DNA of 34,830 nt, from positions 1-34,830 of IMG/VR virus record IMGVR_UViG_3300043446_001781. One strand, written 5' to 3'. The notes below the pieces were generated by a model that was not told where the DNA came from, did not search any database, and worked only from the letters and a program-made list of their open reading frames with translations. Position numbers and translations under genes: made by a program. This DNA is from a virus. This document shows, piece after piece, positions 18,900 to 31,550 of this stretch. Every line of letters begins with the position of its first letter. The first letter of the stretch is position 1.

Positions 18900-20522
18900 C
18901 TAAAAGAACGGATTTGACACTACTTCTACCGTAGGCATTACTAGCTCCTGAGTAAGTGAGCAAGCAATAGCCAGCGAGTCCACGAAGTCGTCGTGAGCGT
19001 ATGCCTCGTCGGGAGCAGCGACCATGAAGTTAGGGCCTTTGTACTGCACTTCGGCGTCAGTCATTTGCTGGTAGAAACGCTTCCAAATGCGCAAACGACG
19101 AGTCTTAGCGTGAGCTGGCCAGCCAATCATACGACGCTGAATAAGGGCCTGGAGGTGCTTAAACCTCTTAGATTGCTCTGACTGGCTAGAGGTTACGGAG
19201 TGAACCTCAGCTCTACCCATAAGAATCTTGAGACGCTGGGCTACTGCGTCACCGACACCGTTCGCGTCTACTCCGATAGCAAGCACGTCGTAGTTCTGTA
19301 GGAAGTTTACAATCTGGAAGTACTGTTCCTCCCAGTCATCGCCCTGAAGCTCGAGCCAGTTGAGGACCTGGTGCGGGAAGTAACCAAACTCGTCTGGTCT
19401 ATCCCAGTCAACCCAGACCACAGTTACTACGGTGGAGTCCATCTTACGGGCAGGGTCAATGCCCACTACTACTGGAGTCTGGTGCCAGTTACGTACTAAC
19501 TCCTGCGAGGTATCGCCCAGCTCATCCATGATGGAGGAGGTTACAAACATGCCTCGTTCTAGGAGCCACTTACAGCAGTATGACATTTGGAACTCATCGG
19601 AGTCTTCTCCAATACGGAGCTTCTCCTTTTTGATGTGAGTTTCGTAGTTAGGGTTAACCTTGGCTACCTCACGCCAGTCCCACTGGAAGTGGTTTTGCTT
19701 TCTACCCTTGGCAGCCTGCATACGCTTGTTCAGCTGAATAGCCTTGTAGAAGTTGTTCTTAGAGGTCGTAGGAGTACCAGTCTTGACCATGGTGCCTGCG
19801 TAGTACGCAAGCATCGGGGAAATTGACTTGGCTACTACAAAGTCGTCGGCTTCCTGACACTCATCGATAAAGATGATATGGAATGACTTCGACTCAATCT
19901 TTGCTCTAGGGTTAGCTGTCATCATGGTCATAGTCGAGCCAGACTTCTTCAGCTTAATGGTCTTGGTTACGCCACCAATACGGGCTGCAACGTCATCAAT
20001 CTCAGGGTCACCTAGAATCTCCAACGCTCTTTCAGAGGTTAGACGAGTAACAGTACGGCCGAATAGAGTTTCCGCCTGGCCTTCAGTAGGTGCAAACAAG
20101 CCCACCCATAGTCCATCTTTAAACTTGCCCAGCAGGTCTGGGTAAATCTTCGCAAGTCTAGGAAGCAGCACCATCATTGTAGCTACTGTGTCAGCCACTG
20201 TCTCCGACTTACCTGACTGACGTGCTGCAAGTGCGGTGATTTCTGCACCATCACCAAGCACCACAGACTCGATGATTCTTCTAGCTAGAGGCTTCTGGTA
20301 CGGATGCAAGTCGTGACCGACAAGCACGTGCATGAACTTAAGCATCTTGTCAACTAGTCGGTCGACAAAGCCCTGAGTTAGCTCATCGACGTCATCGTCA
20401 AGGGCGAACTCATCCTCAACCTCATGGTCTTCCTGGTAGAACTCAGGGTTGATTTCCTCAAACTGAGGCTCTTGGTCGTCGAACTCGTCGTAGAGCTCTT
20501 CTTCAGTATCCGCCATTGTCAT
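18900..20522 (-). CDS. terL: terminase large subunit
   Basis: About 540 residues. After an acidic 50-residue N-terminus come the ATPase Walker A (AARQSGKSE, about 100-108), Walker B (IIFIDEC), a coupling TGTPT segment, then the RNase-H-like nuclease with GIDPAR, GVDANGVGDAV and the final HDDFVDSLAIA acidic pair. It cuts and pumps DNA into the head through the portal. The start is ambiguous: GTG 20525, ATG 20522 and ATG 20516 are all in frame within the upstream gene's end; I chose 20522. Confidence 0.95.
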   Translation of the reverse strand: MTMADTEEELYDEFDDQEPQFEEINPEFYQEDHEVEDEFALDDDVDELTQGFVDRLVDKMLKFMHVLVGHDLHPYQKPLARRIIESVVLGDGAEITALAARQSGKSETVADTVATMMVLLPRLAKIYPDLLGKFKDGLWVGLFAPTEGQAETLFGRTVTRLTSERALEILGDPEIDDVAARIGGVTKTIKLKKSGSTMTMMTANPRAKIESKSFHIIFIDECQEADDFVVAKSISPMLAYYAGTMVKTGTPTTSKNNFYKAIQLNKRMQAAKGRKQNHFQWDWREVAKVNPNYETHIKKEKLRIGEDSDEFQMSYCCKWLLERGMFVTSSIMDELGDTSQELVRNWHQTPVVVGIDPARKMDSTVVTVVWVDWDRPDEFGYFPHQVLNWLELQGDDWEEQYFQIVNFLQNYDVLAIGVDANGVGDAVAQRLKILMGRAEVHSVTSSQSEQSKRFKHLQALIQRRMIGWPAHAKTRRLRIWKRFYQQMTDAEVQYKGPNFMVAAPDEAYAHDDFVDSLAIACSLTQELVMPTVEVVSNPFF

Positions 20523-20736
20523 CACGTCGCTTCAGTTCACGTACAATTTCCAGGAGTGCTTCAGCACCCAGTTCAGCTTCATCAAGATTATGGTCACGCT
20601 TGTGGTGCACAACCATGCGGCCGATTTGAGCCAAGGCATTCTCGGCCCACATAACTAGCTCAGGAGTAGATATCCCAGCTATCCTCTTCTGCATTTTTGT
20701 AGGCTGGGGCTGTCCAGCCTTCTTGAAAATCTTCAT
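20503..20736 (-). CDS. small helical protein upstream of terminase
   Basis: 77 residues, mainly helical after residue 20 (TPELVMWAENALAQIGRM..., AELGAEALLEIVRELKRR). It overlaps both neighbours: about 20 bases with terL and 77 bases with the gene behind. A later in-frame ATG at 20694 would shorten the latter overlap but has no ribosome-binding site. Position next to terL allows a small-terminase-like or packaging accessory role, but there is no visible helix-turn-helix, so I leave it unknown. Confidence 0.65.
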   Translation of the reverse strand: MKIFKKAGQPQPTKMQKRIAGISTPELVMWAENALAQIGRMVVHHKRDHNLDEAELGAEALLEIVRELKRRDDNGGY

Positions 20737-20983
20737 CTTTTAGTACTCGTCCTTGTAGTGCTCTGTTTAGTGCGTCTTCTTCGTCGTCAACACGACCAGT
20801 CCATTTACCACATACTAGTGCCTTGTCAAAAGGAAGTCTCACTATCCACGGAGCGGATGTGCGGAATGGTTCGTTAATTTCTTGAGTCCAGCCTTTTACG
20901 GCGACTCTAAACCCCCACTCAACCCTGTAGTTAGTGAGAAGTTGTACGAAGTGTTGTTTACCGATGTTGTGTACTTTTGGCAT
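20660..20983 (-). CDS. phage protein of unknown function
   Basis: 107 residues, soluble, mixed alpha/beta with aromatic residues (YRVEWGFRVAVKGWTQE, APWIVRLPFD) and an acidic C-terminal third (DDEEDALNRALQ, EEDSWDIYS). It starts three bases after the stop of the KTSC-domain gene and overlaps the following gene by 77 bases, so it is coupled to the packaging block. No recognised family. Confidence 0.65.
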   Translation of the reverse strand: MPKVHNIGKQHFVQLLTNYRVEWGFRVAVKGWTQEINEPFRTSAPWIVRLPFDKALVCGKWTGRVDDEEDALNRALQGRVLKDEDFQEGWTAPAYKNAEEDSWDIYS

Positions 20984-27999: not shown

Positions 28000-28070
28000 T
28001 GCCCCGTGGTGTAAAGGAAGCACGTGACTCTTTGGAAGTCGAGGATTTGGGTCGGTACCAGACGGGGCAG
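28000..28070 (+). tRNA. tRNA-Gln(UUG)
   Basis: 71 bases fold as a cloverleaf: 7-bp acceptor TGCCCCG/CGGGGCA, D stem GTGT/GCAC, anticodon stem TGACT/AGTCG (one T.G) with loop CTTTGGA (anticodon TTG), a 4-base variable loop, and T stem TTTGG/CCAGA. The U1-A72 pair and G73 are glutamine identity features. The T loop GTCGGTA is unusual, with G at position 54. No CCA is encoded. It ends 11 bases before the HNH start codon. Confidence 0.85.
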
Positions 28071-28081
28071 CTTAGGAAGAT

Positions 28082-28516
28082 ATGGACTACGCTGAAGTAA
28101 TACCTAAACTGCGGGCAGAAGGTAAGACCTATGCCGAGATTCGCGCGATTACTGGGGCGGCTAAAAGCACCATCTCCTACTACTGTGGGGATAATCAACG
28201 GGAGAAAACTGTGAATCGCACAAGGAGCTACGACGCAGTCATTCGTGGGTACTTGGTGCACACGAAAGAGACTACTCCCTGTGCAGACTGCTATAACTTA
28301 TTCCCGTATTACGTAATGCAGTTTGACCACTTGCCTGGATTTGTCAAGCTATTCAACTTGTCAGCATTTAGGGACTACACTCACGACTTAGATGTTGTAA
28401 AACGCGAGGTAAGTAAATGCGACGTGGTCTGCGCCAATTGCCACGCCATTCGAGAACATCACCGACGCGGGGCCCGTAAGAATATTGACGGAGTCTACGA
28501 CGATGAGCTAGACTAA
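28082..28516 (+). CDS. HNH endonuclease with N-terminal helix-turn-helix
   Basis: 144 residues. Residues 1-36 form a small DNA-binding helix-turn-helix (AEGKTYAEIRAITGAAKSTI). The HNH fold follows: CADC (67-70) and CANC (117-120) as zinc knuckles, FDH (81-83) for the catalytic His, then CH and EHHRR at 120-129. Such enzymes are homing or DNA-processing nucleases. Standing between tRNA-Gln and tRNA-Arg, it looks like a free-standing homing endonuclease inserted in the tRNA cluster. AGGAAG precedes the ATG. Confidence 0.85.
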   Translation: MDYAEVIPKLRAEGKTYAEIRAITGAAKSTISYYCGDNQREKTVNRTRSYDAVIRGYLVHTKETTPCADCYNLFPYYVMQFDHLPGFVKLFNLSAFRDYTHDLDVVKREVSKCDVVCANCHAIREHHRRGARKNIDGVYDDELD

Positions 28517-28522
28517 ACCCAA

Positions 28523-28595
28523 GCCCGATTAGCTCAGTGGATAGAGCAAGAGCCTTCTAATCTCTTGGTCGTAGGTTCGATTCCTACATCGGGCG
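28523..28595 (+). tRNA. tRNA-Arg(UCU)
   Basis: 73 bases: acceptor GCCCGAT/ATCGGGC, D stem GCTC/GAGC, anticodon loop CTTCTAA (anticodon TCT), 5-base variable loop, T arm GTAGG-TTCGATT-CCTAC, discriminator G. The anticodon stem has one C.T mismatch at 31-39. CCA is not encoded. It would read AGA and AGG. Confidence 0.96.
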
Positions 28596-28600
28596 CGTAA

Positions 28601-28672
28601 GCCCCAGTAGCTCAGTGGTAGAGCGACGCTCTTGTAAAGCGTAGGTCAAGAGTTCAATCCTCTTCTGGGGCT
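28601..28672 (+). tRNA. tRNA-Thr(UGU)
   Basis: 72 bases: acceptor GCCCCAG/CTGGGGC, D stem GCTC/GAGC, anticodon stem ACGCT/AGCGT with loop CTTGTAA (anticodon TGT), T arm AAGAG-TTCAATC-CTCTT, discriminator T. All stems pair. It lies five bases after tRNA-Arg, so the two are probably processed from one transcript. Confidence 0.97.
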
Positions 28673-28689
28673 CTCACAGAAAGGTAACC

Positions 28690-29893: not shown

Positions 29894-30318
29894 TGTTTGT
29901 AGTTGCAGACTGCGCTGACTCACAGTCCCCTGTCTATGCCACCAGCGGCGCGGCAGGGGCGGATTTGCGCTCAAATGAAGAAGTGACTATCTACCCAGGA
30001 GACTGGATGCTGGTAGGCACTGGAGTCAAACTTGAAATGCCTAAGGGCGTTGTAGGACTTATTCACCCACGTAGTGGCCTGGCATTGAAGCACGGTATCA
30101 CCGTCCTAAACGCCCCAGGAACGATTGACTGTGACTACCGCGGTGAGATTAAGGTGATGCTGTATAACGCCTACACAGAGCCGTACACGGTGCTTCCTGG
30201 TGACCGTATCGCCCAGATTGTGTTCCAGCAGTATCTCACCGCTGAGTTCTTCTTAGGAACTGTGTCTGAGAACAGCTACCGTGGCTCAGGTGGTTTTGGC
30301 TCCACAGGCACCAACTAA
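29893..30318 (+). CDS. dut: dUTP diphosphatase (dUTPase)
   Basis: 141 residues, the usual trimeric dUTPase size. All five motifs are recognisable: AGADLRS (about 21-27), PRSGLALKHG (59-68), GITVLNAPGTIDCDYRGE (68-85), GDRIAQI (about 103-109) and the C-terminal arm RGSGGFGSTG. It hydrolyses dUTP to dUMP, the substrate of the adjacent ThyX. Coupled to thyX by TAATG at 29893. Confidence 0.95.
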   Translation: MFVVADCADSQSPVYATSGAAGADLRSNEEVTIYPGDWMLVGTGVKLEMPKGVVGLIHPRSGLALKHGITVLNAPGTIDCDYRGEIKVMLYNAYTEPYTVLPGDRIAQIVFQQYLTAEFFLGTVSENSYRGSGGFGSTGTN

Positions 30319-30359
30319 AAGAGAAAAAGAAAACCCCTCAGGATTACCTGGGGGGGTTT
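30319..30359 (-). terminator. bidirectional terminator: dut (+) and large ncRNA (-)
   Basis: AAACCCCTCAGG (30331-30342) pairs with CCTGGGGGGGTTT (30347-30359) around ATTA, with one bulge. Plus strand: a weak tail (TTTCTTATT), enough to end the thyX/dut transcript. Minus strand: the tail reads TCTTTTTCTCTTTT, a better U tract, so it also serves as a strong end for the RNA coming from the right. Confidence 0.8.
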
Positions 30360-30699
30360 CTTATTAAATTAAGCAGTACCGCCACCCCGAATGACGTTCA
30401 ACGGACAGGATAGGGTTGTCTACTGGCGGCACTGCTAGTGGGATTGTCGGATTTGCACCGTTTGACATGGCTTCACCTGGAGTGCTTCCAGTTACCATAC
30501 AATCCCTAGCCGTTCTCTTACGAGGGTGGACTAACCTTGACGGATGCACCATGGATGGCCTATCGCATGTAGCCATGTTTAACCAACCAAGTGTGGTGCA
30601 CTCTATTTATCCTACTACCTGCCGCAGCAAAGGGTAATAGGACCAGCAATTCCGTAGGTCGGACGAGTATTCCCATCCCATGAAGGGAACTGCTGTTTG

Positions 30700-30781
30700 T
30701 TGGAGCAGTGAGATTTGCACTCACTCAGCATAAGCAACGGTTTTACAGACCGCCCCGACTCTCTAACTTCGGCGTGCTCCA
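30700..30781 (-). tRNA. tRNA-Tyr(GUA) embedded in the large ncRNA
   Basis: 82 bases: acceptor TGGAGCA/TGCTCCA, D stem CCGA/TCGG, anticodon stem GCGGT/ACCGT with loop CTGTAAA (anticodon GTA), a 12-base class II variable arm, T stem GTGAG/CTCAC with loop TGCAAAT, discriminator A. The long variable arm and A73 suit Tyr. The T loop with G at position 55 is unusual. It lies on the same strand as the ncRNA and directly abuts its neighbouring stems. Confidence 0.9.
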
Positions 30782-30907
30782 GTTGCCCTTGGATAAGTAC
30801 TCACCTTGCGGCATTCCCATCTTTCGCACGTGCTTGGGCGACACACGTGAAGATACGTTCCTAAACGTTTGCTGGTTTATCCTGTGGACTCTGCAACTAA
30901 CGTACCG

Positions 30908-30987
30908 TGGACCTGCACAGAATCGAACTGTGGTCTTACAGACTCCGACTAGCGGCCTTGTTCTGTAATCGACACCATTTCAAGCCC
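30908..30987 (-). other. tRNA-like element with a canonical T arm, no cloverleaf
   Basis: Minus strand CACAG-TTCGATT-CTGTG (30916-30932) is a perfect tRNA T arm and its flanks GGGCTTG and CAGGTCC can pair over seven bases with two G.U pairs. However, no acceptable anticodon stem-loop exists in the 46 bases between, so I treat it as part of the ncRNA fold or a decayed tRNA. Confidence 0.45.
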
Positions 30988-31085
30988 TTGTTTGAAGACC
31001 CCAGCAGGGAAAGGGGAGGAACCTGCTGGGGCCTTATCACCAAACACACCCGCAGAAAGGAAAGGAGGAACTACGAGCAATATTT

Positions 31086-31113
31086 AGTTTACTGCCTTTT
31101 GCGACACTGTCAA
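31086..31113 (-). promoter_or_regulatory. promoter for the large ncRNA
   Basis: On the minus strand a consensus -35 TTGACA (31113-31108) and a -10 TAAACT (31091-31086) are separated by 16 bases. The start is expected near 31079, just downstream of the gene at 31143. No ORF with a ribosome-binding site follows, which supports a non-coding product. It is the best -35 match I noticed in the window. Confidence 0.65.
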
Positions 31114-31142
31114 GTTATTGCCAGCACTTTATGCCTGTTTTA

Positions 31143-31550
31143 TTAGGCAACTCCGTTTGCAAAGTCTTGATTAAAACGGCGTAAAGGAGTGTGCACACCC
31201 TCGTCTTCTCCCTTGAAAGAAGACATGCGAGTTAGCTTAACGGGGGTTCCTGGCTTTACTGGAACCTCCGACTCTCCAGGAGCTAAGGCATATCCAGCAG
31301 CTTCGGCGTCATCATTAGAGAGGACGTGGTCCTTGTGGATGTATCCTTCTAGCACTGAGCCGCCGTACTGCTCCTGCTTCCAACCACCAGCCTGGTGGCG
31401 AGCAAACGCCTGGGCTACTGCCTCGTTTGTTGTCCAGTGAGTTCCTAGACCCTGGAAGTTAACTACAGGCTCAGATGGGTAGTGCTTAAATCCGCGGTAA
31501 ACCTTGATGTGGTCCGCAAACTGCGGCCCAAGGTTCTCTTCCATAGCCAT
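31143..31550 (-). CDS. ADP-ribosyltransferase-like protein (R-S-E type)
   Basis: 135 residues. Three landmarks of R-S-E ADP-ribosyltransferases appear in order and with sensible spacing: Arg in VYRGF (17-21), an STS-like strand GTHWTTNEAVAQAFA (36-50), and an ExE-like ESEVPV (93-98) before the beta strand VKLTRM. The fold would use NAD to modify a protein Arg or similar. The STS motif is HWT rather than S-T-S, so activity is uncertain. Phage enzymes of this class modify host proteins (T4 Alt, ModA, ModB). GGAGA precedes the start; the upstream stop is two bases away. Confidence 0.62.
   Translation of the reverse strand: MAMEENLGPQFADHIKVYRGFKHYPSEPVVNFQGLGTHWTTNEAVAQAFARHQAGGWKQEQYGGSVLEGYIHKDHVLSNDDAEAAGYALAPGESEVPVKPGTPVKLTRMSSFKGEDEGVHTPLRRFNQDFANGVA

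What the first reader, a model, noticed from the sequence alone, without database searches (positions are those of the whole stretch)
30319..31113. A self-contained ~750-base structured RNA gene, GOLLD/ROOL-like
The region has no credible ORF but at least eight ordered inverted repeats, a TTGACA-16-TAAACT promoter at one end and a hairpin with a U-rich minus-strand tail at the other. All three imperfect long stems (13, 10, 10 bp) show A.C on the plus strand but G.U on the minus, so the RNA, not the DNA, is under selection, and the transcribed strand agrees with promoter, terminator and the embedded tRNA-Tyr. Size, phage setting and tRNA proximity match GOLLD and ROOL RNAs, large ornate phage RNAs shown by cryo-EM to form multimeric cages. 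Whether it is one of these or a new class I cannot tell.
Basis: partly seen in the sequence, partly recalled or inferred. Interest (0 to 1): 0.92.

Follow-up and report, generated by a model that had tools for sequence, protein, structure and literature searches.

The report
Phage RNA island with mini-tmRNA
This phage stretch makes no protein but encodes several folded RNAs, including a stripped-down tmRNA (the bacterial ribosome-rescue RNA) that keeps the half loaded with alanine and lacks the half encoding the degradation tag; the same mini-tmRNA occurs, mostly unannotated, in many other phages and may interfere with or reroute ribosome rescue in infected cells.

Summary
The observation largely holds: the minus strand of 30319-31113 is non-coding, structured and oriented as stated. 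It is not GOLLD or ROOL (no Rfam match at E<=10) but an island of several RNAs. (1) 30987-30909: a 79-nt mini-tmRNA, the tRNA-like domain of tmRNA with alanine-identity pair G3.U70, lacking mRNA-like domain, pseudoknots and tag. I collected 82 distinct copies (73-80 nt), 79 viral, with strong covariation; 257 Gb of prokaryote genomes gave 3. A covariance model adds more, including five Streptomyces phage isolates with no tmRNA annotated. No full tmRNA passed threshold in 35 carrier records, no SmpB in 43. (2) tRNA-Tyr. (3) Directly behind it, 30698-30440: new contiguous domains A-B-F-G, optional but nearly always in the same order across 29 viruses, absent from Rfam, covarying. The promoter recurs in two other viruses. 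Most likely the mini-tmRNA is charged by host AlaRS, bound by host SmpB, enters stalled ribosomes without a tag template and competes with host trans-translation (inferred; no expression or biochemical data). The role of A-B-F-G is unknown. tmRNAs without the tag part were known from jakobid mitochondria; I found no phage report in open papers.

The parts
31086..31113 (-). promoter TTGACA-16-TAAACT
   Evidence: sequence; the same hexamers at the matching place in L023 (spacer 18) and L011 (spacer 16)
31051..31075 (-). module J hairpin 1, loop containing UUCCUCCUUUC
   Evidence: aligned in L023 and L011 with compensatory stem changes (CGTAG/CTGCG versus CATAG/CTATG)
30995..31035 (-). module J hairpin 2 (14 bp, pyrimidine-rich loop)
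   Evidence: homologous hairpin in L023 and L011 with a different stem sequence and similar loop
30909..30987 (-). mini-tmRNA: tmRNA tRNA-like domain without mRNA-like domain, 79 nt, G3.U70
   Evidence: model R2 76.4 bits; homologues L023, L114, L084, L096, L083 and dozens of other viruses
30782..30908 (-). unassigned spacer between mini-tmRNA and tRNA-Tyr; predicted hairpins
   Evidence: no homologue except a weak hit of 30938-30870 to L054; fold
30699..30781 (-). tRNA-Tyr (GTA)
   Evidence: ARAGORN; similar to tRNA-Tyr of Streptomyces phages
30608..30698 (-). domain A: two abutting helices, P2 with CWU bulge and YGMG tetraloop
   Evidence: 20 viruses; covariation; model R1 89.6 bits
30544..30601 (-). 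domain B (GUGCACC...GGUGCAU, nested stems)
   Evidence: six viruses; stem changes read by eye
30507..30540 (-). domain F hairpin (UAGUC/GGCUA around CCACCC..GAACG)
   Evidence: L037, L096, L104, L105, L108, L115; related form I in L020, L023, L044, L117
30440..30506 (-). domain G: acceptor-like stem, long arm, T-loop-like UGCAAAU hairpin; tRNA-like
   Evidence: 9 viruses; 152/152 cells paired in 8 of them, 5 pairs changed on both sides
30372..30436 (-). 3' hairpin, 13 bp stem, no homologue found
   Evidence: I4
30324..30365 (-). probable two-way terminator hairpin

Best explanation
The stretch is a minus-strand RNA island, probably one transcript cut at tRNA-type ends: leader hairpins J, a mini-tmRNA, tRNA-Tyr, then a contiguous multi-domain RNA A-B-F-G and a terminator. 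Shown by sequence comparison: the mini-tmRNA is a real, conserved, mainly viral RNA family with the acceptor stem, T-arm, D-loop and G3.U70 of the tmRNA tRNA-like domain (TLD), and a short covarying helix plus hairpin (AAARCC..GGA) in place of the roughly 300-nt mRNA-like part. Inferred: host AlaRS charges it, host SmpB and EF-Tu carry it into ribosomes stalled on broken mRNA, it takes over the nascent chain but offers no tag codons, so it competes with host tmRNA and yields untagged or alanine-tailed products instead of tagged, degraded ones. The function of A-B-F-G is open; its order, contiguity and flanking tRNA and tRNA-like element suggest one RNA released by RNase P and RNase Z. Confidence that the element is a TLD-only tmRNA gene: about 0.9. 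That it acts on trans-translation as a competitor or tag-less rescuer: about 0.5.
For: 82 distinct copies of 73-80 nt, all with 7/7 acceptor pairs, at least 4/5 T pairs and G3.U70; pairs 4 and 5 take 5-6 types; 69 different P2 5' strands. Covariation score 0.811 versus 0.184 shuffled, 97.8% of cells paired. U70 was fixed by the search pattern but G3 and pairing were not; copies found outside the pattern (L096, L083, LuckySocke, pSt2308, BRock, Shaeky, Alone3) also keep G3.U70. R2 separates copies (>=50 bits) from full tmRNAs and tRNAs in viral loci (<=34 bits) and from anything in 296 genomes of one bacterial phylum (<=38.3 bits). Carriers lack SmpB (0 of 43 viral records; control rings in 10 of 14 genomes) and any other tmRNA above threshold. 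Same-strand tRNAs within 3 kb for 31 of 86, opposite for 2. A lab-made TLD fragment binds SmpB, and with SmpB supports poly-alanine synthesis without mRNA (PMC3929946). Domain order K-A-D-B-F/I-G with near-constant spacing.
Against: No transcript, charging or binding data. The window copy scores only 21.9 bits with Rfam's nearest tmRNA model, and a whole-record RF00023 search of the window gave no match. Most copies (55 of 86) have no same-strand tRNA within 3 kb on the DNA held, so the island setting is not general. 66 of 86 do not encode CCA, so they need CCA addition. Several module boundaries rest on few sequences. Domain order has exceptions (L105, L089).
Confidence: 0.6

Rival explanations
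1. The mini-tmRNA is a helpful rescue RNA: it frees stalled ribosomes with only alanine added, and survives mRNA-cutting or anticodon-cutting defence nucleases because it has neither codons nor an anticodon.
For: Lies in tRNA islands of isolates near an RNA ligase gene (LuckySocke, pSt2308), a setting often read as defence against tRNA cleavage; related island phages carry full tmRNAs instead (L044, L095, L106, L116); jakobid mitochondria keep tmRNA without the tag part (PMC3985003).
Against: With no template the ribosome cannot terminate in a known way; no defence-challenge data.
Confidence: 0.25
2. The mini-tmRNA is an alanine carrier for a non-ribosomal reaction (for example Ala-tRNA-dependent wall or lipid modification), not a trans-translation part.
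For: AlaRS identity pair kept in all copies; no anticodon.
Against: The tmRNA D-loop motif (GGUUUCGAC type) is kept in most copies, which an alanine carrier would not need; no matching transferase was looked for.
Confidence: 0.08
3. The whole interval is one large ornate RNA (a new GOLLD/ROOL-like class) with an embedded tRNA and tRNA-like domains.
For: Single promoter and terminator; A-B-F-G contiguous with near-constant spacing and order in many viruses, which freely shuffled genes would not show.
Against: A, D, G and the mini-tmRNA each occur without the others; tRNA-type ends inside the transcript predict cutting; 30908-30782 and 30436-30372 have no clear homologues; no GOLLD/ROOL match.
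Confidence: 0.15
4. Remnant of host ssrA picked up at a prophage attachment site.
For: ssrA is a known phage integration site and ssrA fragments occur in prophages (PMC9004378).
Against: Both 5' and 3' halves are present with compensatory changes over dozens of viruses and a fixed length.
Confidence: 0.02

Closest known systems
Bacterial one-piece tmRNA (ssrA, RF00023)
   Same: Acceptor stem, T-arm, D-loop without stem, G3.U70, helix P2; the Rfam tmRNA model scores most copies above its cut-off
   Different: No mRNA-like domain, tag or pseudoknots; 73-80 nt instead of about 350; viral, no SmpB gene in the same virus
Jakobid mitochondrial tmRNA (Jacob et al. 2004, via PMC3985003)
   Same: tmRNA that has lost tag region and pseudoknots
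   Different: Organelle versus phage; not compared by sequence here
Laboratory TLD fragment of T. thermophilus tmRNA (5' 25 nt and 3' 34 nt joined by UUCG; via PMC3929946)
   Same: Same architecture; binds SmpB
   Different: Man-made; the natural loop is a conserved hairpin with AAARCC
Phage-encoded tmRNAs (402 of 18,146 phages, PMC9004378)
   Same: Phage tmRNA-type genes, often beside tRNAs
   Different: Those were counted as one- or two-piece tmRNAs by ARAGORN, which calls only 1 of 86 minis
GOLLD and ROOL RNAs
   Same: Large phage non-coding RNAs near tRNA islands, sometimes with tRNAs inside (PMC12286853)
   Different: No covariance-model match; conserved part 259 nt; domains optional

Membership tests
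GOLLD | match to the Rfam covariance model (universally conserved 3' region) | tested here: not met
   no GOLLD hit at E<=10 in 30250-31200, none in five related loci; no positive-control GOLLD sequence was run
ROOL | match to the Rfam covariance model | tested here: not met
   no positive control run
GOLLD/ROOL | self-assembly into RNA cages | not testable with these tools
   needs cryo-EM or mass photometry
tmRNA | tRNA-like domain: acceptor stem, T-arm, stemless D-loop with the UGGNUUCGAC-type motif | tested here: met
tmRNA | alanine identity pair G3.U70 | tested here: met
   82 of 82 (U70 fixed by the pattern, G3 not) and all copies found outside the pattern
tmRNA | mRNA-like domain with tag reading frame and pseudoknots | tested here: not met
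   5' and 3' halves joined by a short helix and hairpin; total 73-80 nt
tmRNA | SmpB binding and alanylation | not testable with these tools
   biochemistry needed
two-piece (permuted) tmRNA | 3' half encoded before 5' half | tested here: not met
   order is 5' half then 3' half in every copy
ordinary tRNA | D-stem and anticodon arm with 7-nt loop | tested here: not met
   ARAGORN does not call the window copy and calls only 1 of 86 copies, as tmRNA
domains A, B, F, G versus known RNA families | match to any Rfam family | tested here: not met
   none at gathering score, none credible at E<=10 in the window or E<=5 in five related loci

The most novel reading that the evidence does not exclude
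Phages have evolved a tag-less tmRNA as a dedicated trans-translation effector that is charged by host AlaRS, carried by host SmpB, and turns ribosome rescue into untagged release or alanine tailing; and in a group of viruses related to this one it sits in an RNA island with a second, unrelated, modular structured RNA class (K-A-D-B-F-G) of new function.
Probability: 0.4. Interest if true: 0.92.

Novelty: new variant of a known kind. Interest (0 to 1): 0.84.

Why it matters
tmRNA is known as a two-in-one RNA whose tag part is central to what it does. A widespread viral family that keeps only the tRNA-like half, with the alanine identity pair kept in every copy, suggests that phages target or replace ribosome rescue, and provides natural, minimal candidate SmpB ligands. 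It is testable now, because isolates on laboratory Streptomyces carry it where no tmRNA is annotated. The A-B-F-G RNA adds a new structured RNA class absent from Rfam.

Tried and rejected
GOLLD/ROOL: no match. rRNA mimicry of the modules (suggested by a CCUCC loop and by module D): local alignment with E. coli 16S/23S no better than shuffles apart from one weak antisense match of module C. Anti-Shine-Dalgarno role of the J loops: only a 9-nt resemblance, not tested. Relatives of the neighbouring gene 31143-31550: no match. Genome-contig search for domain A: none. blastn of A-containing queries in isolated phages: mainly tRNA or T-arm hits, no domain A. Pattern AARGCCGCTNGTCGGAG: 30 hits, only L114 and the L023 contig recognised as mini-tmRNAs. 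Some isolates with partial T-arm hits (SM1, JWDelta, S-CRM01, RpAliso, Phynn, Phabba, GMA2) are not minis by R2. ssrA attachment-site remnant: rejected on covariation.

Full report
WHAT IS THERE. The window is a 34,830-base virus record with phage head, portal, terminase and tail genes, an HNH endonuclease, ThyX and dUTPase. Between dUTPase (+, ending 30318) and a minus-strand gene (31550-31143) lies a non-coding stretch read on the minus strand. The longest ORFs there are 86 and 70 aa. The minus strand folds at z -5.6, the plus strand at z -1.4. ARAGORN finds only tRNA-Tyr at 30781-30699.

NOT GOLLD OR ROOL. Rfam cmscan of 30250-31200 at E<=10 lists only weak unrelated families; related loci give only tRNA and tmRNA above threshold. 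I did not run a positive-control GOLLD sequence, but the same scans recover tRNA and tmRNA families well.

FINDING RELATIVES. ThyX neighbours in viral contigs gave 80 loci. Blastn and nhmmer of the window RNA found pieces in L065, L037, L023, L044, L020, L012 and others, each hit covering a different part of the island. Sequence patterns then brought in further viruses.

DOMAIN A (30698-30608). Twenty viruses. In 9 of 20 it begins within a few bases of the 3' end of a recognised tRNA or tmRNA on the same strand, and several more have a tRNA-like T-arm there. Two abutting helices; P2 has a CWU bulge, an invariant UGC/GCA and a YGMG tetraloop. Anchored without gaps, P2 outer columns pair in 173 of 180 cells (shuffled mean 115, maximum 153 of 2000), while unrelated pattern hits pair in 20 of 54. 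On alignment A1 the two helices give covariation score 0.443 versus 0.173 shuffled; sliding the partner by one column destroys it. Model R1 scores the 20 members 52-90 bits, including L082 which was not in the model, and chance hits at most 20. In five viruses P2 is followed by a T-rich stretch, as in a terminator.

DOMAINS B, F, G (30601-30440). B in six viruses; F in several more plus a related form I; G in nine, with 152 of 152 cells paired in eight of them and five pairs changed on both sides. G has a T-loop-like hairpin (UGCAAAU) and an acceptor-like stem; in L037 and L044 the same place holds other tRNA-like folds. Where several domains co-occur the order is K-A-(C/H)-D-B-F/I-G with near-constant spacing (A to B 36-37, B to F 58-60, F to G 52), and any domain may be missing; exceptions are L105 and L089, where A comes last. 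So this looks like one multi-domain RNA with optional domains, 259 nt in the window, behind tRNA-Tyr. None of it is in Rfam. Its function is unknown.

MINI-tmRNA (30987-30909). GGGCTTG-AAA-TGGTGTCGA-[TTACAGA ... TCTGTAA]-GAC-CACAGTTCGATTCTGTG-CAGGTCC. A homologue in L023 scores 64.6 bits with Rfam tmRNA, with 11 nt replacing 302 model positions. After testing pairing, 82 distinct sequences remain; three are in metagenome-assembled genome contigs (L266, L267, L270), which may be viral, and the rest are viral. All have 7 of 7 acceptor pairs and G3.U70; length 73-80. Pairs 4 and 5 covary, four of five T-stem pairs covary, P2 has 69 different 5' strands. On alignment A4 (24 sequences) 97.8% of cells pair and the covariation score is 0.811 versus 0.184 shuffled. 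R2 finds further copies outside the pattern: L096 and L083, both domain-A islands, and Streptomyces phages LuckySocke, pSt2308, BRock, Shaeky and Alone3; GiJojo has it too by blastn. In these records no feature is annotated at that place, except in GiJojo, where it lies under a hypothetical protein. The best score in 296 genomes of one bacterial phylum is 38.3 bits; true copies score 50-80.

CONTEXT. 31 of 86 copies have a same-strand tRNA within 3 kb, 2 an opposite one; ARAGORN of 86. 20 of 86 encode CCA. No SmpB in 43 viral records. In 35 carrier records (window included) every RF00023 match above threshold is the mini itself; one record has a weak 332-base match (25.5 bits). Other island viruses carry a full tmRNA instead, several with tags ending in FALAA. 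So full and tag-less forms look like alternatives. Most records are fragments, so absence is weak evidence. Rfam's tmRNA model scores most copies 50-81 bits, so Rfam-based pipelines may already label some as tmRNA without noting the missing part.

PROMOTER AND LEADER. TTGACA-16-TAAACT at 31113-31086 is by itself a chance-level match, but L023 and L011 have TTGACA-18/16-TAAACT at the same place, followed by two hairpins with pyrimidine-rich loops and compensatory stem changes.

HOW IT LIKELY WORKS. Shown: a conserved RNA family with the features by which AlaRS recognises tmRNA and with the tmRNA D-loop and T-arm. Known from others: the globular part of SmpB binds a TLD fragment and supplies the missing lower half of the tRNA, and TLD plus SmpB supports poly-alanine synthesis without mRNA (PMC3929946); jakobid mitochondrial tmRNAs lack tag and pseudoknots (PMC3985003). 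Inferred: in the infected cell the mini-tmRNA is charged, binds host SmpB and EF-Tu, enters stalled ribosomes and competes with host tmRNA, giving untagged or alanine-tailed products. Whether this poisons host quality control or gives the phage a nuclease-proof rescue RNA is open.

LIMITS. No expression data; the search pattern favours copies with UGGUKUCG and UCC; module borders come from few sequences; the host of the window virus is not known (its tRNA-Tyr and the isolates with the mini point to actinobacteria); novelty was judged against an open-access library only.

Noticed in passing
L218 12313-12382 and L177 6093-6154: Pistol self-cleaving ribozyme (Rfam, 57 and 52 bits) roughly 100 nt upstream of the mini-tmRNA on the same strand: possible processing device.
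   Followed up: no
L037 1034-1101; L044 about 1835-1900: tRNA-like folds in which the anticodon loop seems replaced by a tetraloop (GATA, GTAT), at the place held by domain G in the window.
   Followed up: partly
L020 3063, L086, L108, L114-L118 (module D): Another conserved structured motif, CTGCGGTTCGTAAYTGTTCAGCACC with a GNRA-type hairpin, often directly behind a tRNA 3' end; not in Rfam, not in the window.
   Followed up: partly
L044, L095, L106, L116, L024, L025, L031, L041: Related viral loci encode full tmRNAs, several with tags such as ANSRSAFALAA or AESRSAFALAA.
   Followed up: partly
window 28000-28673: Three further tRNAs (Gln, Arg, Thr) on the plus strand around an HNH endonuclease gene, opposite to the island.
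   Followed up: no
OR725497.1 (LuckySocke) 19655-20737; PV588686.1 (pSt2308) 35215-36327: RNA ligase gene in the tRNA island that holds the mini-tmRNA: hints at tRNA repair against defence nucleases.
   Followed up: no
L023 7806-7718 and L020 3227-3313: ARAGORN reports tRNAs with a 4-base anticodon 'cagg' (possible frameshift suppressor or tRNA-like) in two islands.
   Followed up: no
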